From contig NZ_FMDF01000238.1 in NCBI RefSeq assembly GCF_900091955.1, positions 1 to 64,000 of the forward strand: DNA of 64,000 bases, read 5' to 3'. The notes under the pieces are model-generated. The model did no database searches. It was not told the DNA's origin and saw only the letters and a program-made list of their open reading frames with translations. Both the position numbers and the translations under genes were made by a program. This DNA comes from Streptomyces sp. Ncost-T10-10d. Its GTDB lineage: Bacteria; Actinomycetota; Actinomycetes; Streptomycetales; Streptomycetaceae. Numbering within the stretch: the first letter of the stretch is position 1; every line of letters begins with the position of its first letter. Positions 1 through 56,226 of this stretch are shown here, in pieces.

Positions 1-698
1 GGCTTCCGGCACGCGCTGGAAGACCGGGGCCTGGCCTACGCACTGCAGGTCAAGGGCGAACTGACCGCTCGTGCCGAGGCGGCCAAGCCCCACCAGCCGC
101 CCTACGGTGGGCTCGGTCCCAGGCCGCTGCCCCGCTACCGAACCCGCCCACTCAGCCTGCGCGAACACGTCCTGGCCGCTGGCCGCGACAAAGCGGTGAC
201 GGTCACCTGGCGCAAGGGCTCCAAAGCCGCGATGACCTCCCGCTTCGTGTTCCTGCGCATCCGGCTCGCGGGACGCCGTCCAAAGCCCGCTCCCGACGGT
301 GTCATCGGCCTGACCTGGCTGATCGCCCAGTGGCCCGAGGGTGAGGACGAGCCGGTCAAGTACTGGATATCCAACCTGCCCGCCGACATCCCGGCCCGGG
401 ATCTGGTCCGCCTCGCGAAGTTACGGTGGCGCATCGAGCACGACTACCGCGAGCTGAAGACCACCCTCGGACTCGACCACTTCGAAGGCCGCTCATTCAC
501 CGGCCGGCACCGCCACGTCACCCTCGTCACCGCCGCCCACCTGTTCCCGACCGAACAGCGGACCTGCCCAAAAGTCCCTGCCAGGGCCTGACCCTCTGCC
601 AGACCCTGGACCTCCTCCAACATCTGCTGGCCACCTGGACCGGAACCTGCCCCACCTGCCGACAACCCACCCCATGGCAGCCCTACGACACCACCTAA
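1..698 (+). pseudogene. IS701-family transposase, 3' part, frameshifted
   Basis: The reading frame is already open at base 1 and runs to a TGA at 589-591. It carries the C-terminal half of a DDE transposase (LRWRIEHDYRELKTTLGLDHFEG, here named by its ends LRWRIEHDY and GLDHFEG), a typical IS701 pattern with the catalytic Glu region. After KVPA the expected family tail (GLTLCQTLDLLQHLLATWTG) continues in another frame to a TAA at 696-698, and two C..C pairs follow (CPTC). One C appears to be missing in the run near 583-587, so the gene is a one-base-deletion pseudogene. The 5' part lies outside the window. The right end of this insertion sequence is not recognisable. The next 250 bases (699-950) hold no convincing gene. 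Confidence 0.8.
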
Positions 699-950
699 CA
701 AAGCCCTACCAGGCCCTGCCCGGCCGATCATGTGACTGGCGCGTCCGTGACTCGTTGGTCTGAGTATGGGGCGGGATCAGCGTGGTGACTTAAATGCATC
801 GAAGCCGCGGCCCGCTGGTCCGCGGCTGTATGGAAAGGGAGTTGAGGTCTGTGGACGAGTGGCCCACCGCGTTCTGGAGGCCGGCCCAAGGGGAGATCAG
901 CGACGCCGTGGCTGCTACGCTGTTGGTCGATCTGAGGAAGTGTCTTTTCG

Positions 951-1811
951 GTGCACATACTCGACGATCCGTCGGGGCTCTCGCGTCGTGCTGTTGATTT
1001 TTTGGCACATTCCGCATACATGGATCTCCCCACGTGGGAGCGCCTGCCCACCGATTTCATGCAGGTCCGTGATCTCCGAGGCAAACTCGTGTCGGCACCC
1101 TGGGAGTTGGTAGTACGCCGGGAGGGATTCGCCCAGAAATTCGGTGGCTTGAGGTACACGGTTCGTGGCGGTCCACACGGGTACATGCATGTCCCCTCAA
1201 GCGTCCGCCAGATGCAGAACGAATACCCGGATGAGGTCAGGACATGGCTCCTGGACCGCATGACCCGCAGCGCTGCCAAGGGCCCCCGGGAGCGGTGGGA
1301 CAGGTTTTTGGGATGGGACTTCGACCTGCAGTGCGGAGTGTGGCAGGATCGCCGCGGATGGTTCTTCCACTGGGGTGGCGAGGATGTGGCCGCTCCATTC
1401 AACAGGGTTCAGCACACCGATGGCCGCTGCGGCGCGTATCTCCCCCTTGAAAACCGTCCCCCCCTGTTCGAGTCCGAATACCCCACCGTCCTCCACATGA
1501 TCGAATCGCAGTCCCTCTCGGATCTTGTGGCTGACTGGGATGAGTGGCACGGCGCAACAGGACCCATAGCCCGGGCATTCGACGAGCTCCCCGTCGTTCC
1601 CGAAGCGTCTGGCCCATGGGCAGGCTGGCGTATGGACGCGGATGTCGCCGTATACGAATTTCAGTATTTCTTGGGAGAACCGAAGCCGCAGCGGCCCTGG
1701 GGGTTCGGATCTACACGTCTGGCGGGAAAGGTCGGCGGCGGGTGGAGCAGGCTGCCTGCCAGGCGACAGCCGCGGCAAGCACTTGAGAAGCTGTTGTCCT
1801 TCCAGACTTGA
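951..1811 (+). CDS. Hypothetical protein (286 aa), possibly 5'-truncated
   Basis: I do not recognise the family. The frame opens with GTG and encodes a soluble, Trp- and acidic-rich protein (WDRFLGWDF, WQDRRGWFFHWGGED, ADWDEWHGATGP) without signal peptide or membrane segment. Composition and third-position GC look like a real gene. Just upstream, in another frame, lies a gene-like stretch (VDEWPTAFWRPAQGEISDAV) that ends about where this frame starts, so a frameshift near 945 may have split off the true N terminus. Tryptophan-rich soluble proteins of this size are common among polymorphic-toxin immunity proteins and SMI1/KNR4-like proteins, but I see no diagnostic motif. It lies between an IS701 remnant and an IS1182 element, so it is a stranded accessory gene. 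Confidence 0.5.
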   Translation: MHILDDPSGLSRRAVDFLAHSAYMDLPTWERLPTDFMQVRDLRGKLVSAPWELVVRREGFAQKFGGLRYTVRGGPHGYMHVPSSVRQMQNEYPDEVRTWLLDRMTRSAAKGPRERWDRFLGWDFDLQCGVWQDRRGWFFHWGGEDVAAPFNRVQHTDGRCGAYLPLENRPPLFESEYPTVLHMIESQSLSDLVADWDEWHGATGPIARAFDELPVVPEASGPWAGWRMDADVAVYEFQYFLGEPKPQRPWGFGSTRLAGKVGGGWSRLPARRQPRQALEKLLSFQT

Positions 1812-1877
1812 GGGCCGCGTTTCCGGTGATCTCTGAGTAGCCCCTGGTCATGGGGCGGCCATCGCGTAACTCTCCGA

Positions 1878-3723
1878 CTAACTTGACTCTGTCGGTGATC
1901 TTGGACGGGGTCAGGTGCCGAGGGTGCGCCAGGACTTTGGTCGAGGTAACCCCTGCTGGTCCAGGAAGGTCTGGAAGGCAGTCGGCCGTCTCGGTGAGGA
2001 GGCATCGTCGGTCGCTGACCGGCTGCTGAGTCGTTCGATGTTCACGGCGATGGCTGTGAGTACGTGTTGCAGGTGGGCTTTTGGTTGTCCTCGGTAGCGG
2101 CACCGGCGCATGCCGTGTCCGTGGGCGAACTCGTTGATGGTGCCCTCGACTCCGGAGCGGACCGCGTAGCGGGCCTTCCAGTCGGGTGTCTGCTGCTCAG
2201 CGCGGACTCGGAGTTGCAGGTCGCGGAGTTCGCGTGGCGGGAAGCCCACGGTTCGGGCGCTGTCCGCGGTGGTGGTGCAGTGGGTGCGAGCCGGGCAGGG
2301 GCGGCACTGGCTCTTGGTGAACCGGGCCACGATCAGCGGTGCCGCGGTGGGTGAGGAGGTCGGGTAGGGGCCGTGCCAGCCCGCGCTGACCTGGCCCTGG
2401 GGGCAGGTGACCTGTCGGCGGTCGAAGTCGATGTGGAAGTCGTCCCGGTCGAAGCCTTCATTCTTGCGGTGCTGGCGGGTGGGGTTGCCTGGCAGCGGCC
2501 CGGTGACAGTGATCTGGTGTTCGCGGGCGGCTCGTTCCACGTGGACCAGGGAGGTGTAGCCACCGTCGACCAGGTGTTCGGCGGGCAGCAACCCCCGACG
2601 GGCCAGGCGGGTGTGGATGCCGGGCAGGGCCTGGCCGTCGTTGGTGGCGGCCGAGGTGGTGGCCACGTCGGTGATGACGTCGGCGCTGCCGGGGGTGCAC
2701 GTCTCGGTGAGATGAGCGGCGAAGCCCATCCAGCGGATGATGTGCCCGTGACGGACGTAGCGTGCCGTGGTGTCGTAGGGAGAGACGATCACCAACGAGG
2801 AGGGTGGCAGTCCGCCGTCCTCCTTGGTGCGCCAGCTCAGGCGTCCTGCCGCGTCGCGGCAGTAGTTCTGCACGATGATCTGCCGCAGCGCCCGCACCGC
2901 TGGGCCGGTTCGGTAGCTGGAACTGTCCCGGTTGAGGTGCTCCAACAGCTGGCAGGCGTCGTTGCCTGCGGCCAGGATCCGGGTCTTGGGCCGGGTGGGG
3001 TTCTTGCCCAGGCGGACCGGGCGGCCGTAGCGGCGTCCCCATTCCTCGTCGACCAGGCCGACAAGCAGGTGTCCGGCTGTGCGGGCTACTTCTTCGAGTG
3101 AGGCACGGACCGCCTCGGTGACGAGTTCCAGCCGGGTCAGGTCGCGCACCGCGGCCACGACATGGGTGGAGTCGGTGCGCTGCGTAGTGCGCTCGCTTAC
3201 CAGCCCTGCCTCTTTCAGACGGGCGAGTGCCAGGTCGAGGAGGCGGTCGGCCCTGCCGTCTTCGGTGAGGCGCTCGCGGAAGTCGGCGAGCACGCTGTGG
3301 TGGAAGCCAGGATCGTCCAGCTCCAAGGCCATGGCGTACTTGAAATCGATGCGGCAGCGGATGTCGGCGTACGACCTCCGCTGCCTGCCGGTCCGACATG
3401 CCCATCAGGAACTGCAGAACGCAGACGGTGGCCAGCTGGGCCGGCGAGAGCCCGGGGCGTCCGTCACGCGGGTACCAGCCCGCGAAGTCCTCGTCGCACC
3501 ACAGCCCGTCCAGCCGGTCTCTCACCCACATCGCCGTCGTACCGCCCGGGTTGCTTGCCCGGGCGATTCGCGCGGTCAGAGAAGGGACTTGCTCACCGGA
3601 ACGGGGGCGGAGCGACAACGGACACCTCGGTAGCTGCATCGGCCTTCGGAACAGCCCCGAGCATGCCCGCTGATCACGCTGACGCACTGGAAAACTCCAA
3701 GATCACCGACAGAGTCAAGTTAG
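1878..3723. mobile_element. IS1182-family insertion sequence
   Basis: A 28-bp perfect inverted repeat bounds the element at 1878-1905 and 3696-3723 (outer tip ctaacttgactctgtcgg). The 1846-bp length and the single transposase gene on the minus strand fit IS1182. The transposase is frameshifted, so the element is probably immobile unless helped in trans. Its right tip shares the bases ttag with the left border of the next mobile unit. No convincing target duplication is visible (left flank ctccga, right flank agctcg). Confidence 0.85.
1911..3639 (-). pseudogene. IS1182-family transposase, frameshifted
   Basis: The N-terminal part starts at ATG 3639 (MQLPRCPLSLRPRSG), preceded by GAAGG, and contains the helical segment WVRDRLDGLWCDEDFAGWYP and DRQAAEVV. 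Near 3380 the frame must change by +1 to continue into [18 protein letters not shown] and the rest of the enzyme, which runs to 1911. Downstream are the expected DDE-fold blocks: TQRTDSTHV (first Asp), HLVDGGYTS (second Asp) and [19 protein letters not shown] (Glu), with a [10 protein letters not shown] cysteine cluster. Extra bases (about CCGACATC) at the break are the likely cause. Both halves keep good codon usage, so the lesion is recent. Confidence 0.8.
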
Positions 3724-3766
3724 AGCTCGCGCGGATAGGGGTGGGGTCATGGTTAGCGGTTCGGGC
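3722..3766 (-). repeat. Inverted copy of the IS5-family right end
   Basis: This 45-bp stretch is the reverse complement of 7542-7586 with about one mismatch (core gagctcgcgcggatagggg). It includes the complement of the last transposase codons and stop, so it is a remnant of a second IS copy rather than an ordinary terminal repeat alone. The IS1182 right end abuts it directly. Confidence 0.8.
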
Positions 3767-3786
3767 TGGCTTTGTTCACTTCCAGC

Positions 3787-3927
3787 GGTTCTGGCTCAAC
3801 TTCCGTGATGCGGTGCGGTCGCTGAGTGTGTGGCGGCCAACGCGCGACGGGATCGGCAGGTCAGCGGCTTGCCGCGCTTCGAGCACCGGCCAGCAGCGCC
3901 CGGCATCACAGAAGTTGAGCCAGAACC
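3787..3927. mobile_element. MITE-like element (141 bp) with 25-bp inverted ends
   Basis: Two inverted repeats, 3787-3811 and 3903-3927, match at 24 of 25 positions (outer tip ggttctggctcaacttc). The 91 bp between them has no coding potential. The size and end structure fit a miniature inverted-repeat element, or the two fused ends of an internally deleted insertion sequence. The end sequence reminds me of ISL3-type termini, but I cannot assign it. The rest of 3724-4125 shows no gene. Confidence 0.6.
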
Positions 3928-4125
3928 TTCAGCAGCAGCATTTGTTCGTCGGTTCGGGAGACATCTGGCGCGTGGAAGCGTCGGGAGTGTTCACGAGAAA
4001 TGACGTGGGGTGCATGGGCGGCTCGCCTGTGAGGAAGGCGGCCGGGTAGCCGTGCAGGGCGCCGCCGCGGGCGGGTCGCGGCTGGGCGCCTGGCGATGCG
4101 GTGACGAATGGCCCCGTGGTGGGTC

Positions 4126-4770
4126 TCACTCGCGGTCGGGTACGTCCGGCGTGAGGAGCTGGAGGGCGAGGGTGTCGGCCGCCCATCGCTCCCATGCGGC
4201 GGGCGTCCAGGCGCGGTCGCGGGTGAGGGTGAGGAAGAGTTCAGGGCTGAGCAGGGCGTAGAGAATGTCGGCGGTCTTGTCGACTGTCAGGCCGGGCCGG
4301 GCCCCTGGCTTGTCCAGCAGCGCTTTGGCCGCTGCGGTATGCACGGTGTAACGCGGATCTCCGTGTTCGGGCCACACCTCGCGCAGCTCGGGGTGGGCAG
4401 CGGCTGCGGCGCGGACCATCTCGGAGATGGCGGCGACGCGCTCCAGGATGGTGCGGCTGCCAGTCACGAGTGCGGCAAGGCCGCTGTCGGCGTCCGGCGC
4501 TTCCACCACCTGCGCGAACCAAGGGCGGTCCATCGTTGCCACCGGCGCGTCATCGCCCGCGATGGCTACATCGACCAGTTCCTTCAGCAGCCCGGGCTTG
4601 TTACGGAAGTTGAAGTAGATGGTCTGGATGGCCACGCCCGCGTGGTCGGCGACCTGCTGGAGCGTGGTAGCGCCATAGCCGTTCGCGACGAACAGCTCGG
4701 TGGCGGCGGCAATGATCCGCAGACGTGTACGGGTGGCCCGATCCGACTGAGGTGCCTTGACATCACTCAT
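4126..4770 (-). CDS. TetR-family transcriptional regulator
   Basis: A 214-aa one-component repressor. The N-terminal TetR DNA-binding domain spans about residues 12-60 (RLRIIAAATELFVANGYGATT, then TLQQVADHAGVAIQTIYFNF, the recognition helix-turn-helix). The C-terminal half is a ligand-binding or dimer domain with the Ala-rich helix EMVRAAAAAHPELREVWPEH. It is divergent from a SAM-dependent methyltransferase, and a 32-bp palindrome between them covers both promoters. The mRNA is probably leaderless: a TAGGCT box lies six bases before ATG 4770 and there is no purine-rich ribosome site. It is likely autoregulated and represses the methyltransferase genes. The inducer is unknown. It sits in the IS5-bounded unit, so it is probably horizontally mobile. 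Confidence 0.9.
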   Translation of the reverse strand: MSDVKAPQSDRATRTRLRIIAAATELFVANGYGATTLQQVADHAGVAIQTIYFNFRNKPGLLKELVDVAIAGDDAPVATMDRPWFAQVVEAPDADSGLAALVTGSRTILERVAAISEMVRAAAAAHPELREVWPEHGDPRYTVHTAAAKALLDKPGARPGLTVDKTADILYALLSPELFLTLTRDRAWTPAAWERWAADTLALQLLTPDVPDRE

Positions 4771-4776
4771 GACTAG

Positions 4777-4816
4777 AGCCTACGTCTAGAGTCGACTTCT
4801 AGAGGTCGACTCTAGA
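4777..4816. promoter_or_regulatory. TetR operator and divergent promoter
   Basis: Positions 4785-4816 form an almost perfect 32-bp palindrome: 12-bp arms tctagagtcgac / gtcgactctaga around an 8-bp centre that is itself symmetrical except for one base pair. It lies just upstream of the TAGGCT -10 box of tetR (4777-4782, minus strand), over the expected -35 region, and 24 bp before the methyltransferase start. This is the obvious operator for the divergent TetR. Confidence 0.8.
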
Positions 4817-4839
4817 ACCGTGCGTGAGGGAGAACCCTG

Positions 4840-5673
4840 ATGTCAGCGATCGCCAACCGGGAGCAAGCCAAGGCGTGGAACGACTGGGAGGGCCAGCTCT
4901 GGGCCGACCACCCTGAGCGTTACAACGCAATGCTGGACGCCTTCAACGTGCCGTTGTTCGCAGCGGCCGACATCGCCGCCCACCACGCTGTTCTGGACGT
5001 CGGCTGCGGCACCGGGCTCACCACCCGCCTGGCCGCCCGCCACGCGCACCGCGGCCACGCGCTCGGCATCGACCTGTCCGCGCCCATGCTGGAACGGGCC
5101 CGCCAAGACGCAGCCGCCGAGAACATCACCAACATCACCTTCGAGCAGGGGGACGCGCAGGTCCACCCCTTCGCCGTGCCCGGCTTCGACACCATCATCA
5201 GCCGCGGCGGCGTGATGTTCTTCGCCGACATGGTCGCGGCGTTCACCCACCTGCACGGCGCCCTGGCGCCGGGCGGGCGCCTGGCCTTCCTCGGCCCACA
5301 GCCCGGCGGCCCTCACAGCGCCTACGCGCGGGCGACTGCGGCGCTCGCTCCCTACCTGCACGAGCCCTCACCCGCCGCGCGCGGCATGGGCTCCCTGCTG
5401 GACCCGGCACGGATCACCGAGGTGCTCACGGAGGCGGGCTTCCGCGCCATCGAGATCACCCCGGTCAGCGCGGACATGGGCTTCGGTGCAGACGCCAGTG
5501 ACGCGGCCGACTTCATCTTCTCGATGGGACCCACCCACCACAACCTGCGAGACGTGGACACGGCCACGGTGGCCGCACTACACGCCCAGGTGCAGGACGC
5601 CCTCGGTGAGTTCGAGACGCCGCAAGGCGTGCGCATCCCCGGCGCCGTGTGGATCGTCACCGCCGCACGCTGA
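4840..5673 (+). CDS. Class I SAM-dependent methyltransferase
   Basis: A 277-aa soluble methyltransferase. Motif I, VLDVGCGTG, is at residues 51-59 and binds S-adenosylmethionine. The acidic residue after strand 2 is in GIDLSAPMLERAR, and motif II/III regions follow as FEQGDAQVHPF and ALAPGGRLAFLGP. The substrate is unknown; the fold is that of small-molecule methyltransferases of the UbiE/COQ5 type. GAGGGAG precedes the ATG. It is the first gene rightward of the palindromic TetR operator, and a paralogue follows after 133 bp. The N-terminal motif NREQAKAWNDWEGQLWADHP recurs in both other methyltransferases of this window, marking a distinct subfamily that travels with tetR genes. Confidence 0.88.
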   Translation: MSAIANREQAKAWNDWEGQLWADHPERYNAMLDAFNVPLFAAADIAAHHAVLDVGCGTGLTTRLAARHAHRGHALGIDLSAPMLERARQDAAAENITNITFEQGDAQVHPFAVPGFDTIISRGGVMFFADMVAAFTHLHGALAPGGRLAFLGPQPGGPHSAYARATAALAPYLHEPSPAARGMGSLLDPARITEVLTEAGFRAIEITPVSADMGFGADASDAADFIFSMGPTHHNLRDVDTATVAALHAQVQDALGEFETPQGVRIPGAVWIVTAAR

Positions 5674-5806
5674 AGCCCGCCCGTCGCCCCGCGTGGGCGA
5701 CGGGCCATCGGCAGAGGGCTTGGACGCCCGCTGACCTCGGCGGTTGGACGAGCCCAAAAGCTTCTTGAGCAGACGCCCATACTTTCTCTCCGACGGAAGC
5801 GATCCG

Positions 5807-6685
5807 ATGCACGAACTCGTCAACACCGCACAGTTCGAGGCCTGGAACGGCGACGAAGGCCAACACTGGAGCGATCGCCACGACCGCTGGAACGCGATCA
5901 ACCAGGGCTTCAATCAACCGCTGCTCGAAGCCGCCGGGATCGGCCCCGTGGACCGGGTGCTCGACATCGGCTGCGGCGCAGGCCAGACCACCCGGCTCGC
6001 CGCCAGGGCTGCCTTCCGCGGCGCGGTTCTCGGCCTCGACCTTTCCGGGCCCATGCTCATCAGGGCACGCGCCCAGGCCGCCGAGGAGGGCCTGGACCGG
6101 ATCACCTTCGAGCAGGGCGACGCCCAGGTCCATCCTCTGCCCACATCCGCGTTCGACGTGGCCATCAGCCGGTTCGGGGTCATGTTCTTCGACGACCCGG
6201 TCGCCGCGTTCGGCAACATCGGCCGGGCCCTTTGCCCCGGCGGCCGACTCGCCTTCGTCTGCATGGCCGACCCGACCCGCAGCGAGTGGGTGCCCGTATT
6301 CGGCACAGCACGCACCTCTCTGCCCCTGCCTGCCGAGGAGCCGGCCACCCCCGACGGGCCAGGGATGTTCTCACTCGCCGACCCCTGTGTCATCCACCGG
6401 ATCCTGGACACAGCCGGCTTCGACAAGGTGCGCACCGAACCCGTCGAGACCCTCAGTGACTTCGGACGCGATGCCCACGACGCAGCCGAGCACCTGCTCG
6501 GATCAGGCCCCGGCCGACACCTGGTCAAGCTGCTCGACTCCGCGAGCAGCGTCGACAGCGCGGACCGACCGAGCGGCACCGACAGCGTACGAACCGCGTT
6601 CACCGTCGCTCTTGCCGCCCACGAGCAGCCCGCAGGCGTCCACCTCCGCACCTCCGCCTGGCTCGTGACCGCGACGCGACGCTGA
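5807..6685 (+). CDS. Class I SAM-dependent methyltransferase (paralogue)
   Basis: A 292-aa methyltransferase, paralogous to the preceding gene and to the one at 54645-55490. Motif I is VLDIGCGAG (residues 51-59); LGLDLSGPM and FEQGDAQVHPLP follow, then SRFGVMFFDDPVAAF, which is nearly identical in the distant copy. I chose ATG 5807 because GGAAG lies 8 bases upstream and the homologous N terminus (AQFEAWNGDEGQHW) begins right after it. A further in-frame start at 5744 is less likely. It is probably co-transcribed with the first methyltransferase. The IS5-family transposase gene starts only 33 bp after its stop, so the downstream end of its original operon has been lost. Confidence 0.87.
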   Translation: MHELVNTAQFEAWNGDEGQHWSDRHDRWNAINQGFNQPLLEAAGIGPVDRVLDIGCGAGQTTRLAARAAFRGAVLGLDLSGPMLIRARAQAAEEGLDRITFEQGDAQVHPLPTSAFDVAISRFGVMFFDDPVAAFGNIGRALCPGGRLAFVCMADPTRSEWVPVFGTARTSLPLPAEEPATPDGPGMFSLADPCVIHRILDTAGFDKVRTEPVETLSDFGRDAHDAAEHLLGSGPGRHLVKLLDSASSVDSADRPSGTDSVRTAFTVALAAHEQPAGVHLRTSAWLVTATRR

Positions 6686-6718
6686 GCATCGCCGCCCGGC
6701 CCGCCACTGGGGAGACCT

Positions 6719-7561
6719 ATGCCCGCGCTGCCATCATGGCTGACCGAACCGCTCTGGGACCAATTCGCGGCTCTGCTGCCCGAACGGCCGGTGTATCACC
6801 CGGACCATCCGCTCGGCTGCCACCGCCCGCGGATCAGCGACCGGGTCATCTTCGACAAGCTCCTGCAACTGCTGCGCTTCGGCTGTTCTTACGAGGCGAT
6901 CGCCGACACGACCTGCTCGGCCACCACGATGCGAAACCGCCGCGATGAGTGGATCCGACTCGGCGTCTTCGCCCGGCTCAAGCAGATCGCAATGGAGTCC
7001 TACGACCGAATCGTCGGCCTCGTCCTCGACCAGATCGCCGTCGACGGCTCCATCACCAAGGCCCCCGGAGGCGGCGAGGTCGCCGGACGCTCACCGGTCG
7101 ACCGCGGCAAACAGGGACTCAAACGCTCGGGCATGACGGATGGATACGGCATTCCGCTGGGGCGTGTCCTGGCCGGTGCCAACCGCCACGACTCCCCACT
7201 GCTCGCCCCCACCCTGGACCGCCTGGACGACCTCGGCCCGTTGCCCGAAGACAGCACCGTGCACCTGGACGCTGGTTACGACTCGGACAAGACACGCGCT
7301 CTGCTCAGCGAACGCGGTCTCCGCGGCCGCATCGCGCACAAAGGTGAGAAAGCGCCGATCCAGGCCAGTCAGCGTTGGCACGTCGAACGCACGCACGCCT
7401 GGCAGAACGCCTTCCACCGACTCGCCCGCTGCTACGAACGCCGCGCCATCGTCATCAACGCCTTCTTCGACCTTGCCGACACGATCATCACCGTGCGTAG
7501 CCTGATCCGACGAGCATGGACAACCCACCGCTGGGACGAACGCCCGAACCGCCAACCATGA
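6719..7561 (+). CDS. IS5-family transposase
   Basis: A 280-aa intact transposase of the IS5 superfamily. The N-terminal DUF4096-like helical region (WLTEPLWDQFAALLPERP) is followed by a DDE core with Asp109 (AVDGS), Asp184 (LDAGYDSD) and Glu223 (HVERTHAWQN). The stop codon is 25 bp from the right end, and that end is copied inverted at 3722-3766. GGGGAG precedes the ATG. Third-position GC is high and no frameshift is visible, so the enzyme may be active. It reads in the same direction as the two methyltransferase genes and may be read from their promoter. Confidence 0.88.
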   Translation: MPALPSWLTEPLWDQFAALLPERPVYHPDHPLGCHRPRISDRVIFDKLLQLLRFGCSYEAIADTTCSATTMRNRRDEWIRLGVFARLKQIAMESYDRIVGLVLDQIAVDGSITKAPGGGEVAGRSPVDRGKQGLKRSGMTDGYGIPLGRVLAGANRHDSPLLAPTLDRLDDLGPLPEDSTVHLDAGYDSDKTRALLSERGLRGRIAHKGEKAPIQASQRWHVERTHAWQNAFHRLARCYERRAIVINAFFDLADTIITVRSLIRRAWTTHRWDERPNRQP

Positions 7562-7604
7562 CCCCACCCCTATCCGCGCGAGCTCTTAGCCTCGATCTTT
7601 CTTG

Positions 7605-7633
7605 ACGGTCCGCCGACGGTGTCGGCGGACCGT
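7605..7633. terminator. Hairpin inside the IS1380 left end
   Basis: A perfect 13-bp stem (acggtccgccgac / gtcggcggaccgt) with a 3-base loop is followed by TTCGTTTTC. It lies just inside the IS end, downstream of both the IS5-family transposase (from the left) and the IS1380 transposase (from the right). It can end transcription in either direction and shield the element from read-through. Confidence 0.7.
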
Positions 7634-7749
7634 TTCGTTTTCGGTGGCGGAGGGCGGGCAGGCCGACAGCCCGAATGTCGCGTCGGGTGAGCGCCGGGTT
7701 CCACTGCTCCGGTGGGATGGTGCTCCTCGTAGGGGTGGAAAGTTGCTGG

Positions 7750-9069
7750 TCATCCGGGCTTTGGCAGGAGAGCGAGTCGTGCGAGTGCTGTGGTGATCTC
7801 ATCGGTCCACGGCCAGTGGCGGGCGAAGCGGAGGATGCGACGCCTGCCAGTCGTGACGAGCTGGGCGGCTGGGGAGAAGAGGCGGAGCCGAAGTCGGCGG
7901 GGTTCCCAGAGCCGGGCTTTCCCGGTCAGGGCGAGCATGGGCATCCACGCCAGCAGGTCGAGCGCGATCTGGACGATCTCCAGCCAGACCTTGTTCTGCG
8001 CGGTGTCGTGCAGAGGCAGGTTACGCAGTCCCGTCGCGCGGGCGGCCCGGATCCGGTCTTCGGCCCGGGCCCGCAGTCGGTGACGGAGCTCGAGTTCGGT
8101 GATGGGACGGCCTGCGGTGTTGGTGGCGAAACAGGTGATCCGCATGCCGTCGGCGTCGGTGATCCTCAACTGAGCCCCGGGATGCGGACGTTCTTTGCGG
8201 ACAATCAGCCGCATCCCTGTAGGCCAGCCCTCGAGCAAGTCGCCGGTGAGTTCGGCGACCCAGGCCCCATCGCGGACCTCGCCGTCCGACTCGATGGCTG
8301 GGGTCCATGCCGATGCCGGGATCTTGAGGACGTGCTGGTGGATGGTTACGTTGATCACCATGCCAGCGGGGTAGGACAGCCAGCGCCCGCGCTGGGAGAG
8401 CCAGGAGACGAACTCGTGGGTGCCGCCCGCGGAGTCGCAGCGGATGAGGGTCTGTCGTCCGCGCCGGTATTTCTGGGGCAGTTGAGCGAGAGCGAGGCGG
8501 GCGGCGACGGGTTCGCCCGTTCCACCCGGCCCGTGGTCGACGAACCCCATCAGCGGGTGGTGGCCGTAGGTCTTCTTCCAGGTCGGGGCTGCATCCTGCT
8601 TGTCGGAGTGGGAGACGACCAGGACTCCGTCCAAGTCCACGATCACCTGCCCATCGGTGTCCGGTGCCCGATTGCCTGCCAATGTCCAGGCTTTTTGGCG
8701 CACTTCAGATCGCGCGGAGCGGATCGCGGTCAGTGCCTTCTCTCCCGCAGCAGCGAGGGTGTTGATCAGGCGGGAGACGGTCGGGTCGGAAGCCACCGGC
8801 CCGAACACGGCCGGCTCGGCCCGCAGCATGCCCACATCGGCCAGGCAGTCCCCACCCAACGCGACCGCGAGCGCCACATCGAGCAGGATCTTTCCCGGAT
8901 CGTGCACCGCCCGCGGCTTGCGCCACGGCGCCAACGCCACCGATATCGCCCTGTCCAGCCCGGTTTTGCGGACAGTCTCGACCATCAGCACGCCGCCGGC
9001 CTGGGAGACCACCCCGCGACCACGGCCCTCGATGTGGACACGCGGGTAGGACCCGATACGCTTCTTCAC
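7750..9069 (-). CDS. IS1380-family transposase
   Basis: A 439-aa full-length transposase of the IS1380 family (DDE, DDE_Tnp_1-like group). Landmarks are VIVDLDGVLVVSHSDKQDA (first Asp), KYRRGRQTLIRCDSAGGTHEF (second Asp with the family-specific DSAG), and the C-terminal ENRIRA-like stretch RAEDRIRAARATGLRNLP with the catalytic Glu, followed by a basic tail. The gene looks intact. The alternative start just downstream, at the GGVLMVETVRKTGLDRAISV block, would give a shorter N terminus. The first 22 residues (KKRIGSYPRVHIEG) are duplicated in the remnant near 10000. Confidence 0.88.
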   Translation of the reverse strand: MKKRIGSYPRVHIEGRGRGVVSQAGGVLMVETVRKTGLDRAISVALAPWRKPRAVHDPGKILLDVALAVALGGDCLADVGMLRAEPAVFGPVASDPTVSRLINTLAAAGEKALTAIRSARSEVRQKAWTLAGNRAPDTDGQVIVDLDGVLVVSHSDKQDAAPTWKKTYGHHPLMGFVDHGPGGTGEPVAARLALAQLPQKYRRGRQTLIRCDSAGGTHEFVSWLSQRGRWLSYPAGMVINVTIHQHVLKIPASAWTPAIESDGEVRDGAWVAELTGDLLEGWPTGMRLIVRKERPHPGAQLRITDADGMRITCFATNTAGRPITELELRHRLRARAEDRIRAARATGLRNLPLHDTAQNKVWLEIVQIALDLLAWMPMLALTGKARLWEPRRLRLRLFSPAAQLVTTGRRRILRFARHWPWTDEITTALARLALLPKPG

Positions 9070-9191
9070 CTGGGAAGTGCTTCTTTCCTCGCAGCCAACA
9101 GGACTCTCGACAAGCCCTATCGTTGCAGGTCAGGAGCACTTCTCGCGTTTGCGATCAAACCTCGGACGGCCCGTTTGGCGAAAGCGCGAGG

Positions 9192-9836
9192 CTAGTCGGC
9201 GCGGCCCGTCGCTGCCACGGTCACACCCAGTCCGATCATCGCGAAGCCGCCCGCGCCACCGACCATCGACAGGCGGCGGTCCGAGCGGGCGAACCAGGAG
9301 CGGGCCGCCGAGGCGCCCAGTCCCCAAAGGGTGTCCGTGATCACGCCGATGGCGACCGGGACCAGCCCCAGCACCATCATTTGGAGGGGGACACGGCCCG
9401 CCGAATGGTTCACGAACTGCGGTAGCACCGCCGCGAAGAAGACGAGGCCCTTCGGGTTGGTGAAGCCCACGAGAATACCGTCCAGGACCGTGCGCAGATC
9501 GCCGCGCCGCTCACCCGCCGGGGCCTCCATGTCCGCTGCGCGCATCTCCTTGCGGTGCCGAAACGCCTGCACGCCGAGGTAGACGAGATACGCCGCGCCG
9601 ACCAGCTTCACGCCCGTGAACACCGCCGCAGAAGTCTCCACCAGCATGCCAAGGCCCCACGCCACAGCGGTCACCAGGAGGTACGAACCGATCAAGTTGC
9701 CCAGGACGGTCGCGAGCGCCGTGCGGCGGCCGTGCGCTAGGGCTCTACCGATCACAAACAGCACACTCGGCCCTGGAATCACGATCACGAGTAGTGACAT
9801 CGCCGCGAACGCGAGAATGCTCTCCATGGACACCAT
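9192..9836 (-). CDS. LysE/RhtB-family amino acid exporter
   Basis: A 214-aa inner-membrane protein with six predicted hydrophobic segments. The LysE signature is clear: N-terminal IVIPGPSVLFVIGRALAHGRR, central VYLGVQAFRHR and VGFTNPKGLVFFAAVLPQF. The family exports amino acids or analogues such as homoserine, threonine or lysine; the substrate here is unknown. GGAGG lies ten bases before ATG 9836. The stop codon is the TAG of the CTAG at 9192-9195, where the IS1380 element ends, so the 3' end directly touches the insertion and the last codons may be altered. It lies between a full IS1380 and an IS1380 remnant in the same orientation, like the cargo of a composite transposon. Confidence 0.88.
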   Translation of the reverse strand: MVSMESILAFAAMSLLVIVIPGPSVLFVIGRALAHGRRTALATVLGNLIGSYLLVTAVAWGLGMLVETSAAVFTGVKLVGAAYLVYLGVQAFRHRKEMRAADMEAPAGERRGDLRTVLDGILVGFTNPKGLVFFAAVLPQFVNHSAGRVPLQMMVLGLVPVAIGVITDTLWGLGASAARSWFARSDRRLSMVGGAGGFAMIGLGVTVAATGRAD

Positions 9837-9929
9837 CTGTCCGTCACCTCCTGGACTGCCTTCCAGAGGTCATACAAACAGACAGCGAACCGTCCGCTCT
9901 AGGCTCATCCATCTGCCGAGACGCCGCTC

Positions 9930-10123
9930 CGGCCTGGACGCCACGACCCGGCCGCTGCCCTCGACACGGACGCACGCATACGGCCCGATGCGCTTCTTCA
10001 CCCGAGGAGTGCAGCATTCCCGACGGCGTACAGGAACCTGGACAAGTCCCATCGGTCAAGGTCAGCGGCGCTCCTCGCGCATCTGAACAAGCCTCGGACA
10101 GGTCGCCTCATGAAAGCGCGAGG
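9930..10123 (-). pseudogene. IS1380 remnant: right end and transposase start
   Basis: This stretch matches the last 200 bp of the intact IS1380 (about 8990-9191). It encodes KKRIGPYACVRVEGSGRVVASR, named here by its first residues KKRIGPYACVRVEG, against KKRIGSYPRVHIEG in the full copy, and ends with the same tip gaaagcgcgagg followed by CTAG at 10124-10127. The remainder of the element is deleted. Between the lysE start (9836) and this remnant (9837-9929) is a short upstream region without a clear promoter. The first 130 bp after the remnant belong to the next IS. Confidence 0.7.
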
Positions 10124-10127
10124 CTAG

Positions 10128-11712
10128 TACTCCAGCAGGAATTCGCAGTCTGACCTGCGGATTTCGCTGGGCGGCTGGAGTGTAGCGGGCTGTGGAGTGG
10201 TCAGGGGCGGTTTCACGGAGGCCGCCCCTCGATCGTGCGACAACGCCGCAGGTAATGACGGCGGGTGGGAAAGCTCCCCACGTGATCACCGAGCATGATG
10301 CCGAGCAGTGGGACCTTGAACTGGACAACCTCTTCGTGACCATCGGTCATCGCTTCGGCCGTGTGGAACTTCGCCGCCGCATGCGTGACTACGTGCGTGG
10401 GCTGCTCGCCCCGGTGGCCCGCAAGAACAGCTGGCAGCTGGCCGAACAGGCAGGCCACGCCACCCCCGACGGCCTGCAGCATCTGCTCGCCGGGGCGAAG
10501 TGGGAGCCGGACGACATCCGCGATGAACTGCAGGGATACGTCGCCGAAAAGCCTGGCGAGGACGACGGAGTCCTCATCATCGACGACACCGGGTTCATCA
10601 AGAAGGGCACCACCTCCGCCGGGGTCCAACGCCAATACTCCGGGACCGCCGGTCGCACCGAGAACTGCCAGATCGGCGTGTTCGCCGCCTATGCCACCGC
10701 CCGCGGCCGGGCCTTGGTCGACCGTGAGCTGTATCTCCCCAAGTCCTGGGCAGAGGACCGTGAACGCTGCCGCGCGGCCAAGGTCCCCGACGATCGGGAG
10801 TTCGCCACCAAGGGGGCACTGGCCCGGCGCATGGTGCTGCGTGCCCTCGGCTCGCCGCTGCCCATCACCTGGGTCACCGCGGATTCCGCCTACGGACAGG
10901 AGAGCCGCTTCCGCCGGCTGCTGGAGCAATCGGGCGTCGGCTACGTGCTGGCCGTGCCCAAGTCCCAGTTCACCGTGGGGTGTCCCCGCATCGAGGGTCT
11001 GTTCGCGCAGGCCCCGGCCGAGGCGTGGGAGAAGATCTCATGCGGCAACGGCGCGAAGGGACCGCGCGTCTACCACTGGGCGGCGGTGCGACTGCCGGCT
11101 GTCGCCGAGTTCGATTACCAGGGCGAGGTCCCTCACCGGATGCGGTGGGCGCTGGCCCGTCGCAGCATCCGCAAGCCCGACGAGATCGCCTACTACCTCG
11201 CCTACGCCCCTTTGGAGACCACCGCCCAGAAGCTGGTGCGGATCGCCGGGACGCGCTGGGCGATCGAGGAGTGTTTCCAGGCCGCGAAGAACGAGTGCGG
11301 TCTGGATCAGTACGAAGTCCGTCGTTACCCGGGTTGGTACCGGCACATCACCCTAGCAATGCTCGCGCGTGCCTTCCTGGCAGCCACGGCGCACCGGGCC
11401 CGGGAAAAGGGGGGCGGAACCGGCGAGGCAGCCGGGGCCATCGAGCTCACAGTGGCGGAGGTTCGGTGACTCCTGGCAGCTTGTCGTCCCCGGCCCCGCA
11501 CCTGCGCGGACATCGAGGCCGGCACCACGCGGTGAGCTGGTCGCAGTGGCGCCGACGACGCCAAGCAGTCGTTCGCCGCTGTCATTACCTGCGGCGTTGT
11601 CGCACGATCGAGGGGCGGCCTCCGTGAAACCGCCCCTGACCACTCCACAGCCCGCTACACTCCAGCCGCCCAGCGAAATCCGCAGGTCAGACTGCGAAAT
11701 CCTGCTGGAGTA
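10128..11712. mobile_element. IS701-family element with 132-bp terminal inverted repeats
   Basis: Positions 10128-10259 and 11581-11712 are inverted copies matching at 131 of 132 positions (outer tip tactccagcagg). CTAG flanks both sides (10124-10127 and 11713-11716), the target duplication expected for IS701. The repeats are far longer than the roughly 20-30 bp normal for the family. The left repeat ends at the transposase start codon region, so the right one is effectively an inverted duplicate of the promoter-bearing end. The element is 1585 bp long. Confidence 0.85.
10255..11469 (+). CDS. IS701-family transposase, probably missing its C-terminal tail
   Basis: A 404-aa DDE transposase. 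The catalytic blocks are VLIIDDTGFIKKG (first Asp), WVTADSAYGQ (second Asp) and AIEECFQAAKNECGLDQYEVR (Glu), with the family motif QRQYSGTAGRTENCQIGVF. I chose ATG 10255, preceded by GCAGG; a longer frame to GTG 10192 lies inside the terminal repeat. The frame stops at a TGA after LTVAEVR, where the family normally continues. The usual Arg-rich tail (WSQWRRRRQAVVRRCHYLRR) is encoded downstream in another frame up to about 11595, so the tail was lost by a nonsense change plus a frameshift. Whether the shortened enzyme works is unknown. Confidence 0.85.
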   Translation: MTAGGKAPHVITEHDAEQWDLELDNLFVTIGHRFGRVELRRRMRDYVRGLLAPVARKNSWQLAEQAGHATPDGLQHLLAGAKWEPDDIRDELQGYVAEKPGEDDGVLIIDDTGFIKKGTTSAGVQRQYSGTAGRTENCQIGVFAAYATARGRALVDRELYLPKSWAEDRERCRAAKVPDDREFATKGALARRMVLRALGSPLPITWVTADSAYGQESRFRRLLEQSGVGYVLAVPKSQFTVGCPRIEGLFAQAPAEAWEKISCGNGAKGPRVYHWAAVRLPAVAEFDYQGEVPHRMRWALARRSIRKPDEIAYYLAYAPLETTAQKLVRIAGTRWAIEECFQAAKNECGLDQYEVRRYPGWYRHITLAMLARAFLAATAHRAREKGGGTGEAAGAIELTVAEVR

Positions 11713-52738: not shown

Positions 52739-53040
52739 TCACCACCCTGGCACGCACGTGCGGCACGCGCGGCCCCCGTCCGCTGCTACCAGGCCGACGC
52801 AGCGGGAGGCGGACGGCCGCCCCTTCGTGTCCCTGCGCCGCAACCGGGCGGTACGGATGGCGAGCAGGAGCGCCGAGCCTGCGCACAGCAGCGCCGTGAT
52901 CAGCAGCCAGTTGCCGGGGAACACGTCGGGGGACAGCCCGCTGTAGGGCTCGTACCGCACCGCGTGCCGGGTGATCAGCGGTCACCACATCAGCAGGAGC
53001 AGGCCGGAGAGGAAGGCCGGTACGCGCAGGCTGGCCATTG
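52739..53040 (-). pseudogene. Decayed membrane protein with early stop
   Basis: ATG 53040 opens MASLRVPAFLSGLLLLMW, then meets a TGA (codon 19) and continues in the same frame as PLITRHAVRYEPYSGLSPDV, FPGNWLLITALLCAGSALLL and AIRTARLRRRDTKG. The pattern is a two-helix membrane protein; a TGG-to-TGA change at codon 19 is the simplest explanation. It is divergent from the MFS gene at 53103 and shares the ATACCCC palindrome with it. It could be read as two parts, but the second has no ribosome site. Confidence 0.5.
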
Positions 53041-53057
53041 ATACCCCTAGGGGGTAT
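53041..53057. promoter_or_regulatory. CsoR-like palindrome upstream of an MFS gene
   Basis: ATACCCC-TAG-GGGGTAT is a perfect 7-bp-arm palindrome, 45 bp before the MFS start codon. A related TACCCCCC...GGTAT stretch follows at 53074-53089. Inverted C/G tracts flanked by AT are typical of operators of the CsoR/RcnR copper- or persulfide-sensing family. No csoR gene is in the window, so the regulator would act from elsewhere. Confidence 0.55.
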
Positions 53058-53102
53058 GTTTCAGCTCGTCGACTACCCCCCTCCGGTATAGGAGTACTTG
53101 CG

Positions 53103-54644: not shown

Positions 54645-55490
54645 TCACCCGGGCCGGCGGGCGGTGACCAGCAGGGCGGCGCTGCGCAGTTGGAGTGTTC
54701 CTGACCGCTCGCGGGGTCGCAGGAGGTCGACGAGCCTCCGCCGGGCGCGATCCCGGACATCCTCCCCGGCCTGGCTCATCAGATGCCGGCCGGGGCCGGA
54801 GTCCAACAGGAAGGCGGCGGCGTCGACGGCGTCCCGGCCCCATGTCCCGTACGCCTCGACGGGTGCGGTGCCGATGGCCTCGTACCCGGCGCGGGACAGT
54901 ACGTCGCGCACGGTCGCCGGGTCCGACAGCGAGAACATGCCGGGGCCTCCCGGGGCACCCAGTCCGCCGACGGGCAGGATGTCTCGCAGCCCCTGGATGG
55001 CCTGCAGCCACTCGGTCCGGCCGGGCTCCGCAGGGCACACGAAGGCGATACGGCCACCGGGGCGCAGGGCCCGACCGATGTTGGTGAAGGCGGTGACGGG
55101 ATCGTCGAAGAACATCACCCCGAAGCGGCTGATCGCGACATCGAAGGTGCCGGGACCGAACGGATGGACCTGGACGTCCGCCTGCTCGAACGTCACATGG
55201 CCGAGCGCCTCGCACTGCGCGGACTCCCGCGCACGGGCGAGCATCGGGGCAGACAGGTCCAGGCCCGACGCCCGGCCGCCACTCGCCCGCCGTGCGGCAA
55301 GACGGGTGGTGCACCCCGCCCCGCAGCCGATGTCGAGGACGCGGTCCCGTTCAGTGATCGCTGCGGCGGCAAGGAGCGGTTCGTTGAATCCTTCGTTCAC
55401 ACCGTCCCAGCGGTCCTGGTTGTTGGCCCAGTAGTTCCCCTCGTAACCGTTCCATGCCTTTTCCTGGTCCCTGTTGGCAATGCGTTGCAT
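54645..55490 (-). CDS. Class I SAM-dependent methyltransferase
   Basis: A 281-aa methyltransferase, the third of its subfamily in the window. The N terminus NRDQEKAWNGYEGNYWANNQ parallels the other two; motif I is VLDIGCGAGCTTRLAARRA, FEQADVQVHPFGP and SRFGVMFFDDPVTAF follow. The start is ATG 55490, with GGGGAG ten bases upstream; an in-frame TTG at 55538 would lie inside the promoter. It is divergent from a tetR gene with two GTATGGGC-N4-GCCCATAC operators between. The same gene arrangement occurs at 4126-6685, so this is a recurring module of TetR and methyltransferase. Confidence 0.88.
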   Translation of the reverse strand: MQRIANRDQEKAWNGYEGNYWANNQDRWDGVNEGFNEPLLAAAAITERDRVLDIGCGAGCTTRLAARRASGGRASGLDLSAPMLARARESAQCEALGHVTFEQADVQVHPFGPGTFDVAISRFGVMFFDDPVTAFTNIGRALRPGGRIAFVCPAEPGRTEWLQAIQGLRDILPVGGLGAPGGPGMFSLSDPATVRDVLSRAGYEAIGTAPVEAYGTWGRDAVDAAAFLLDSGPGRHLMSQAGEDVRDRARRRLVDLLRPRERSGTLQLRSAALLVTARRPG

Positions 55491-55541
55491 GTGGTGTTGC
55501 TCCCCGATGGATGCAGGCGCCCAGGAGACGTCAGACAACTA

Positions 55542-55584
55542 GTATGGGCGGGCGCCCATACAAGGTATGGGCAATCGCCCATAC
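55542..55584. promoter_or_regulatory. Twin TetR operator
   Basis: Two 20-bp palindromes with the same arms, GTATGGGC-N4-GCCCATAC, lie at 55542-55561 and 55565-55584, centre to centre 23 bp apart, between the divergent methyltransferase and tetR genes. Two turns of DNA between the centres would place dimers on one face. They are the obvious sites for the TetR encoded at 55612. Confidence 0.82.
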
Positions 55585-55611
55585 TGTAAACACGTTGAGA
55601 GGGAGGGGCCC

Positions 55612-56226
55612 ATGTCACCGCGAGGTGTGACGACTCCGGACGTCCGTGAGCGGCTGTTCACCGCCGCGGAGCGGGTGCTGGAGCGTGAGGGGCCGGGAGC
55701 CCTGACGAGCAGAGCGATCACCGGTGAGGCCGGCTGCGCGAAAGGCCTTCTGCACGCGCACTTCTCCGGACTCGACCAGTTCGTCGCGGAGTTGGTCCTG
55801 GACCGTTTCGCGCGAGTGGCCCGGCACGCCGAAGAACTCCGGGAGCGGGTGGGGCGGGGCACCGTCGCGGAGAACCTTCTCGGTATCGCTCTCGCGCTCC
55901 TGGCCTCGGCCGGCCCCACCGTCGCCGGCCTGGCGCTCACCCGCCCTGCGGCGTCCGTGCGGATCCGCGAGGCCCTGGAGGGCGGTGCGCCGGGCTTCGA
56001 CACGGTCCAGGACGCGATCGCCGACTACTTGGACGCCGAACGGCGGGGCGGCCGGATCGCGGTACGGGCCGACACCGCCTCCGCGGCCCTCGCCCTGGTC
56101 GGGGCCCTCCACCACCTGCTCATGACCGGCGGACACGACGGACGGAACGCACAGGATCGGGTCGGGCGACTGGTGGCCCTGCTCGAAACCACCCTGCGGC
56201 GCGGGCCCGACGACGTCGCCGAGTGA
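55612..56226 (+). CDS. TetR-family transcriptional regulator
   Basis: A 204-aa repressor. The HTH is VRERLFTAAERVLEREGPGA, LTSRAITGEAGCAKGLLHAH and FSGLDQFVAELV. The C-terminal domain (LALLASAGPTVAGLALTRPA, ALALVGALHHLLMTGGHDG) is ligand-binding. ATG 55612 follows GAGAGGGAGGGG. It should repress the divergent methyltransferase gene and itself through the twin GTATGGGC operators, which overlap both promoters. It is the partner of the methyltransferase at 54645. Confidence 0.9.
   Translation: MSPRGVTTPDVRERLFTAAERVLEREGPGALTSRAITGEAGCAKGLLHAHFSGLDQFVAELVLDRFARVARHAEELRERVGRGTVAENLLGIALALLASAGPTVAGLALTRPAASVRIREALEGGAPGFDTVQDAIADYLDAERRGGRIAVRADTASAALALVGALHHLLMTGGHDGRNAQDRVGRLVALLETTLRRGPDDVAE

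What the first reader, a model, noticed from the sequence alone, without database searches (positions are those of the whole stretch)
4126..6685. tetR-methyltransferase module occurs twice in the window
Here and at 54645-56226 a TetR is divergent from a methyltransferase of the same subfamily (N-terminal NR/DQ.KAWN motif, shared SRFGVMFFDDP), with a long palindromic operator between. The operators differ completely in sequence, so the two repressors have diverged. One copy lies in a mobile unit. The substrate may be a xenobiotic or antibiotic that both induces and is methylated, which would be a detoxification pair not usually described.
Basis: partly seen in the sequence, partly recalled or inferred. 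Interest (0 to 1): 0.55.

Follow-up and report, generated by a model that had tools for sequence, protein, structure and literature searches.

The report
Two mobile repressor–methyltransferase modules, one chimeric
This soil bacterium carries two small self-contained switches, each a chemical-sensing repressor beside a methyl-transferring enzyme; such pairs recur in related bacteria, one here sits among jumping DNA, and they probably let the cell disarm a toxic small molecule by methylating it, though which molecule is unknown.

Summary
The pairing is real and conserved, but it is not one module duplicated. Locus A holds a TetR (TetR-A) divergent from one methyltransferase (MT-A1), followed by a second (MT-A2). 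Locus B holds a different-lineage TetR (TetR-B) divergent from MT-B. In a genus sample, all 56 relatives scoring >=364 bits have an adjacent TetR (55 divergent); none of 26 other methyltransferase genes sampled from this genome does. Operators follow the repressor lineage: GTATGGGC-N4-GCCCATAC for TetR-B (73 of 74 rows), TCTAGAG-N5-CTCTAGA for TetR-A (9 of 9 first genes). MT-A2 is a B-type enzyme whose homology to an IS-bracketed TetR-B module begins inside the TetR-B operator, so locus A looks chimeric. Among 59 TetR-A-family loci, 25 instead face a TPMT-like methyltransferase (two tested are close to a heterocyclic toxin methyltransferase), 11 an oxidoreductase, 3 MFS transporters, 2 glyoxalase-like proteins. 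Of 19 next-tier TetR-B relatives, 18 face a third methyltransferase subfamily. One sensor lineage with exchangeable detoxification-type effectors makes inducible detoxification by methylation the best reading. Inducer and substrate are unknown; repression was not measured.

The parts
3722..3766 (-). 45-bp end relic of the IS5-like element, inverted relative to the copy at 6705-7588; left bracket of locus A
   Evidence: 98% identity to the end of the 6705-7588 copy; also matches the outer ends of both IS copies in L024/L090
4126..4770 (-). TetR-A repressor gene
   Evidence: TetR_N 5.8e-15; TetR-A cluster
4772..4816 (.). operator A: three overlapping TCTAGAG-N5-CTCTAGA-type sites (4772 two mismatches, 4785 one, 4798 exact)
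   Evidence: no match with fewer than 3 mismatches elsewhere in the genome
4840..5673 (+). MT-A1, class I SAM methyltransferase, A clade
   Evidence: Methyltransf_25 6.8e-23; groups with methyltransferases of TetR-A modules (99*)
5679..5705 (+). strong hairpin between MT-A1 and MT-A2 (possible terminator)
   Evidence: fold of 5671-5770; z = -4.0 for the whole 100-nt stretch
5766..5782 (.). remnant of operator B; DNA homology to L024 begins here
   Evidence: four mismatches to the 20-bp palindrome, all in the left arm
5807..6685 (+). MT-A2, B-type methyltransferase without its own repressor gene
   Evidence: 91% protein identity to the L024/L090 methyltransferase, 94% DNA identity from 5766; tree
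6705..7588 (+). IS5-like element (transposase 6719-7561); right bracket of locus A
   Evidence: DDE_Tnp_1 and DUF4096; 91% to the IS copy in L024
54645..55490 (-). MT-B, class I SAM methyltransferase
   Evidence: Methyltransf_11 3.2e-21; AlphaFold2 model mean pLDDT 94.5
55542..55584 (.). operator B: two GTATGGGC-N4-GCCCATAC palindromes (55542-55561, 55565-55584)
   Evidence: the only exact copies found in the genome; within 2 mismatches in 73 of 74 TetR-B divergent rows, 66 distinct upstream regions
55612..56226 (+). TetR-B repressor gene (start corrected from 55567)
   Evidence: TetR_N 6.9e-7; TetR-B cluster; AlphaFold2 model mean pLDDT 91

Best explanation
Each locus is a self-contained chemical switch. 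A TetR dimer sits on a dedicated palindromic operator between two divergent genes and represses a methyltransferase (and probably itself). A small molecule releases it, and the enzyme, probably by methylating that molecule or a relative of it, makes it harmless. The two switches come from two TetR lineages that each took up the same methyltransferase subfamily. Locus A is a chimera: a TetR-A/MT-A1 module now stands where TetR-B and part of its operator stood in an IS5-bracketed TetR-B/MT unit, leaving MT-A2 behind MT-A1 without its own repressor. Shown: gene content, conserved pairing, lineage-specific palindromes, chimeric junction in the assembly, IS brackets. Inferred: that the palindromes are bound, repression, release by ligand, substrate, detoxification, order of events.
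For: Pairing: 56 of 56 genus-sample methyltransferases at >=364 bits have a TetR (55 divergent within 350 bp) against 0 of 26 sampled other Methyltransf_11 genes of the genome; TetR within 1.3 kb of 72 of 82 rows of 80 named loci. In 20 divergent TetR-B loci only TetR and methyltransferase recur, 19 of 20 each, within 5 kb on either side. Operators by lineage: B within 2 mismatches in 73 of 74 rows (66 distinct), A within 1 in all 9 first genes of TetR-A loci; none of 870 mononucleotide shuffles within 2 for B. Exact sites only at the loci themselves, so local switches. Gaps of 69 and 121 bp obey the <200-bp rule for TetR repressors (PMC3511530: passages and one section). Chimera: DNA homology to L024 starts at 5766 inside operator B. 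Effector exchange: of 59 TetR-A-family loci, 25 face a TPMT-like methyltransferase (of two searched, one has the heterocyclic toxin methyltransferase as best PDB match, 1.7e-20, the other as second best, 5.6e-19), 8 face this subfamily, 11 a saccharopine-dehydrogenase-like oxidoreductase, 3 MFS transporters, 3 ABM, 2 glyoxalase-like. Accessory: 18 records of the plasmid collection carry a relative; 3 of 3 annotated ones looked at have a divergent TetR.
Against: No inducer, substrate or repression was measured. The closest folds of MT-B are methyltransferases of several functions, many biosynthetic, so fold does not single out detoxification. 31 of 89 genus-sample relatives have no TetR found nearby; 11 of these 31 adjoin a CMD-family gene and 5 also an amidase, which points to a metabolic role in that branch. 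In 9 of 80 named loci, all Actinomadura, the row also holds an oxidoreductase, equally at home in metabolism. Of the 59 TetR-A-family loci, 3 face ABM-family proteins, 6 gave no clear partner and 1 no called ORF; two of the unclear ones gave an ABC transporter and a beta-lactamase-family protein. The hairpin at 5679-5705 may cut MT-A2 off from the TetR-A promoter.
Confidence: 0.6

Rival explanations
1. Endogenous role: the methyltransferase tailors or turns over a metabolite or signal made by the cell, and the TetR senses that metabolite (feedback, not defence).
For: 11 of 31 TetR-free genus-sample relatives adjoin a CMD-family gene and 5 an amidase; 9 of 80 named loci include a saccharopine-dehydrogenase-like enzyme; nearest structures include biosynthetic methyltransferases such as MitM, RebM, AtmM. 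The authors of PMC3511530 suggest that many TetR-enzyme pairs are metabolic (passage).
Against: No other conserved neighbours in 20 divergent TetR-B loci (best 5 of 20); patchy (156 of 392 genus genomes and 19 of 396 phylum genomes at E<=1e-50), present in the plasmid collection and IS-bracketed in two genomes; related TetRs face MFS transporters or glyoxalase/Ble-like proteins.
Confidence: 0.25
2. Locus A is a decaying transposon remnant: MT-A2 was stranded by recombination and is silent or constitutive, without function.
For: Operator B is truncated upstream of MT-A2, a strong hairpin separates it from MT-A1, and the left IS is a 45-bp relic.
Against: The three genes have intact reading frames. 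The same order, TetR-A / A-type MT / B-type MT, exists in two Saccharopolyspora genomes with a second enzyme from a different B branch, closely spaced as in an operon.
Confidence: 0.2
3. Inducer and substrate differ: TetR senses a general stress signal or lipid, and the enzyme acts on a different target such as a lipid, quinone or macromolecule.
For: The best structural neighbours of TetR-B (E 1e-5 or weaker) include fatty-acid, drug and nucleotide sensors alike.
Against: Single-operator local regulons and effector exchange within one sensor lineage fit a specific toxic ligand better.
Confidence: 0.12

Closest known systems
Rv2887-Rv0560c of M. tuberculosis (MarR repressor and heterocyclic toxin methyltransferase; PMC5526998, passages read)
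   Same: Ligand-released repressor of a SAM methyltransferase; the enzyme was reported to N-methylate and inactivate a toxic compound
   Different: MarR instead of TetR; Rv0560c is much closer to the TPMT-like partners of TetR-A relatives (1.7e-20 and 5.6e-19 in the two searched) than to MT-B (3.2e-6)
TetR regulators divergent from enzymes in Streptomyces (PMC3511530, passages and one section)
   Same: Divergent, <200 bp apart, palindromic operators
   Different: 'methyl' does not occur in that paper's main text; lineage-specific partner exchange is not treated in what I read
TetR-TetA tetracycline switch (background passage in PMC3511530)
   Same: Divergent pair, two palindromes between the genes, drug-released repression
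   Different: Effector is an enzyme, not a pump
GtmA/TmtA S-methyltransferases
   Same: Top structural matches of MT-B, Z 25.6-25.7, rmsd 3.1 over 263 residues
   Different: 16-17% identity; fungal, and no TetR known to me (recall). Fold likeness is no evidence of substrate

Membership tests
TetR-family repressor with divergent target | TetR_N DNA-binding domain in both regulators | tested here: met
   5.8e-15 and 6.9e-7, both above cut-off
TetR-family repressor with divergent target | divergent gene less than 200 bp away with a palindrome between | tested here: met
   69 and 121 bp; palindromes
TetR-family repressor with divergent target | represses the divergent gene and is released by a ligand | not testable with these tools
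   needs binding and reporter assays
Class I SAM-dependent methyltransferase | methyltransferase domain above curated cut-off and Rossmann-type fold | tested here: met
   Pfam scores above cut-off for all three; model of MT-B and PDB matches
Heterocyclic toxin methyltransferase (Rv0560c type) | sequence family membership of MT-B | tested here: inconclusive
   Rv0560c matches MT-B only weakly (3.2e-6), behind 21 other distinct sequences; fold match Z 22.1, not distinctive; MT-A1 and MT-A2 were not searched against the PDB on their own
Heterocyclic toxin methyltransferase (Rv0560c type) | methylates a toxic heterocycle | not testable with these tools
   needs enzyme assay
Trans-aconitate methyltransferase (Tam) | reaches the NCBIfam cut-off | tested here: not met
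   39.5 bits against 297 for MT-B
UbiE/MenG quinone methyltransferase | reaches the NCBIfam cut-off | tested here: not met
   53.4 bits against 216 for MT-B
   TetR-A and TetR-B fall in separate clusters without significant BLASTP similarity; MT-A1 and MT-B fall in different clades

The most novel reading that the evidence does not exclude
There is a previously undescribed class of mobile, inducible 'methylate-to-disarm' cassettes in actinomycetes, built from two TetR sensor lineages that exchange methyltransferases from at least three subfamilies. A-type and B-type enzymes have twice been brought into one TetR-A-controlled row, in this genome and in Saccharopolyspora, because they act on the same toxic scaffold, for instance at two positions.
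Probability: 0.25. Interest if true: 0.7.

Novelty: new variant of a known kind. Interest (0 to 1): 0.5.

Why it matters
Resistance by methylating the drug itself is rarely recognised (general knowledge), and these enzymes carry only generic family labels (none of the listed NCBIfam models reaches its cut-off; plasmid records call them class I SAM-dependent or methyltransferase-domain proteins). The operator classes found here give ready-made reporters: the natural inducer can be sought without knowing the substrate, and the enzyme then tested on it. If inducer and substrate coincide, a family of actinomycete resistance determinants gains a function. The operator-level junction and the change of partners also show how a sensor and its effector are recombined in nature.

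Tried and rejected
Rejected: (a) module duplication within the window; (b) known families: none of the listed NCBIfam models (the 25 best for each methyltransferase, all for the two TetRs) reached its cut-off; (c) a wide regulon: matches with up to 3 mismatches, the real sites included, are no commoner than the reversed-pattern control, 27 against 38 for B and 17 against 171 for A; one 2-mismatch B site on contig C25 was not followed; (d) the MFS gene 52971-54557 as part of module B: tblastn against the 80 named loci gave 15 loci with 40-43% matches, each more than 1 kb beyond the methyltransferase, all Actinomadura, none in a Streptomyces locus; (e) 'tetC' TetRs next to L040, L052 and L076 as a further lineage: these loci also carry a TetR-B downstream. 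Led nowhere: fold search for TetR-B's ligand (generic TetR matches); paper searches for the pairing (one search returned no paper; the others seen as listings with starts of abstracts); heterocyclic toxin methyltransferase papers (listing); passages of PMC9736018, not relevant. PMC4978242, the primary Rv0560c paper, is not held, so I cite it through PMC5526998. Whether TetR-A / A-type / B-type rows are more frequent could not be followed further: the genome cap was nearly spent (1972 of 2000).
Full report
WHAT IS THERE. The window is G000:C3:1-64000 of a 9.36-Mb genome in 243 contigs. Its genus is not named by the tools; the closest named relatives of its methyltransferases are in Streptomyces. 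Locus A: TetR-A 4126-4770(-), 69-bp gap, MT-A1 4840-5673(+), MT-A2 5807-6685(+). Locus B: MT-B 54645-55490(-), 121-bp gap, TetR-B 55612-56226(+). Both regulators carry TetR_N and the three enzymes are class I SAM methyltransferases. They share an N-terminal stretch ending in AWN; MT-B is 55% identical to MT-A2 and 47% to MT-A1, and MT-A1 is 45% identical to MT-A2.

THE PAIRING IS CONSERVED. From (392 genus genomes, 156 with a match at E<=1e-50) I examined the 29 best loci outside the window's genome and 60 further loci, every second of the remaining printed rows (one such row left out) plus two extra; matches beyond the printed list were not seen. Of these 89 loci, 58 have a TetR within 1.3 kb (55 divergent within 350 bp, 2 same-strand downstream, 1 convergent) and 31 have none. 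The border is sharp: all 56 with a score of 364 bits or more have one (55 divergent), and 31 of the 33 below have none. 'None' means no TetR found by my profile in 1.5-kb flanks; other regulator types were not sought systematically. Control: 30 of 44 Methyltransf_11 places in this genome were fetched; without the four family members, 0 of 26 have a TetR in flanks of 1.5 kb from the domain. In the best 80 of 252 named relatives, 72 of 82 methyltransferase rows have a TetR within 1.3 kb: mostly divergent in Streptomyces, mostly same-strand downstream in Actinomadura, Streptosporangium, Amycolatopsis and others. Within 5 kb on either side of 20 divergent TetR-B loci (named loci, all Streptomyces but one actinomycete MAG) only the TetR and the methyltransferase recur (19 of 20 each; a cluster of 7 overlaps the TetR gene on the other strand, the next 5 of 20), and TetR and methyltransferase distances correlate (r = 0.857, n = 74 rows, 0 of 999 permutations as high; shared species history contributes). 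In the plasmid collection 18 records hold a relative (one is 11.9 Mb long, so not a plasmid in the usual sense); three of three annotated ones looked at carry the same divergent pair, a fourth is unannotated there. Across the phylum the subfamily is patchy: 19 of 396 genomes at E<=1e-50.

TWO REPRESSOR LINEAGES, LINEAGE-SPECIFIC OPERATORS. BLASTP finds no significant similarity between TetR-A and TetR-B. At 1e-20 the adjacent TetRs fall into a TetR-B cluster of 112, a TetR-A cluster of 9 and a few small ones. Operator B (GTATGGGC-N4-GCCCATAC) is present with at most 2 mismatches in 73 of 74 TetR-B divergent rows (66 distinct upstream regions, since named and unnamed sets overlap); the exception, L020, has a 2-mismatch site farther up. 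None of 870 mononucleotide shuffles reached 2. Operator A (TCTAGAG-N5-CTCTAGA) is present with at most 1 mismatch before all 9 first methyltransferases of TetR-A loci; the 3 remaining TetR-A rows are second genes of tandem rows. In loci where TetR-B follows the methyltransferase, a third palindrome of the ATGAAC..GTTCAT kind lies upstream in 25 of 38 rows, counted by eye. In this genome exact sites occur only at the two loci, so each repressor probably controls only its own module.

LOCUS A LOOKS CHIMERIC, ON MOBILE DNA. In the methyltransferase tree (quick IQ-TREE, 108 rows) MT-A1 groups with TetR-A partners (99*), while MT-A2 groups inside the TetR-B partners (99* with L024). MT-A2 is 91% identical in protein to the enzyme of Streptomyces sp. 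NWU339 (L024; L090 gives identical results). DNA homology (94%) begins at window 5766, inside operator B, so part of one palindrome remains while TetR-B and the rest of the operator are missing; the IS5-like element that follows in both is 91% identical. In L024 the TetR-B module lies between inverted copies of that IS (left copy partial); in the window a 45-bp inverted IS end (3722-3766) lies left of TetR-A. The simplest reading (inference) is that a TetR-A/MT-A1 module replaced TetR-B inside an IS-bracketed unit. An assembly error at the junction cannot be excluded without reads. The order TetR-A, A-type MT, B-type MT also exists in two Saccharopolyspora genomes, where the second enzyme belongs to another B branch (70% to Streptosporangium L053) and follows closely, so it probably arose separately. 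A strong hairpin (5679-5705) leaves open whether MT-A2 is read from the TetR-A promoter.

WHAT THE RELATIVES OF THE REPRESSORS DO. I searched TetR-A in 392 genus and 394 class genomes (39 and 41 with a match) and examined the 59 loci returned, one of them the window's own. Of the unclear ones L280 is an ABC transporter protein and L275 a beta-lactamase-family protein. Two of the 25 TPMT-like enzymes were searched against the PDB: the heterocyclic toxin methyltransferase Rv0560c is best for L250 (1.7e-20) and second for L260 (5.6e-19). In 22 of those 25 loci a site within 2 mismatches of operator A lies before the gene. On the TetR-A tree the partner types form blocks: TPMT-like one branch 99*, the 7 close present-subfamily loci 97*, with L290 a long lone row. 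For TetR-B (394 class genomes, 85 with a match; 30 loci returned and examined): the 11 closest (240 bits or more, one the window's own) all have the present subfamily; of the 19 next (179-193 bits), 18 face a third methyltransferase subfamily, and 16 of these 18 show an AGTGGGC/GCCCACT palindrome (counted by eye), a variant of operator B. The present subfamily shares little more than the SAM-binding core with the other two (33-34% over about 125 residues; the other two were not compared with each other).

HOW IT MOST LIKELY WORKS. Shown: conserved local switch architecture and its recombination. From published work: all five TetR regulators tested with a gap under 200 bp repressed the divergent gene (PMC3511530, passages and one section). 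Inferred: a small molecule releases the TetR and the methyltransferase neutralises it. The inference rests on effector exchange (methyltransferases, oxidoreductase, transporters, glyoxalase-like proteins behind one sensor lineage), on the accessory and IS-linked distribution, and on precedent: Rv0560c, induced through MarR Rv2887, was reported to N-methylate and inactivate a bactericidal compound (PMC5526998, passages). Against it: no substrate, generic folds, and the TetR-free branch of which 11 of 31 sampled loci adjoin a CMD-family gene and 5 an amidase.

NOVELTY. TetR-enzyme divergons and inducible detoxifying methyltransferases are known kinds. I found no paper on this methyltransferase subfamily with TetR, on its operators, or on the exchange of partners, in ten searches of the held open-access library; most subscription papers are not held. 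Hence a new variant of a known kind.

Noticed in passing
L007:5997-9277 (G000:C203) and L214, L216-L218, L220-L225, L227: Relatives without TetR: 11 of 31 sampled loci adjoin a CMD-family gene and 5 also an amidase gene; L007 has both. A different fixed context of the same methyltransferase family.
   Followed up: partly
L035, L039, L040, L052, L055, L059, L067, L068, L076 (about 5.9-7.0 kb): Rows methyltransferase - saccharopine-dehydrogenase-like oxidoreductase - TetR-B in 9 of 80 named loci, all Actinomadura; the same oxidoreductase type faces TetR-A relatives elsewhere.
   Followed up: partly
L183, upstream of the methyltransferase at 1501: A B-type methyltransferase with an exact operator-B palindrome upstream but no TetR-B in the 1.5-kb flanks; its nearest TetR belongs to neither main cluster.
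   Followed up: no
window 1-11650: Dense insertion-sequence region: an IS701-type fragment (196-591), DDE_Tnp_1_6 (1911-3332), IS5-like (6719-7561), DDE_Tnp_1_4 (7750-9069) and DDE_5 (10192-11469) transposases around locus A.
   Followed up: no
window 52971-54557: DHA2-like MFS efflux gene convergent with MT-B (below the NCBIfam cut-off); no such gene found in the named Streptomyces TetR-B loci searched.
   Followed up: yes
L327:2177-3454: The one TetR-B relative of its tier without the third methyltransferase has a neighbouring ORF whose start reads like an FAD-dependent monooxygenase (by eye, no family search); its palindrome also differs.
   Followed up: no
G000:C25:12920-12939: A 2-mismatch operator-B-like palindrome about 330 bp from another Methyltransf_11 match of this genome.
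   Followed up: no
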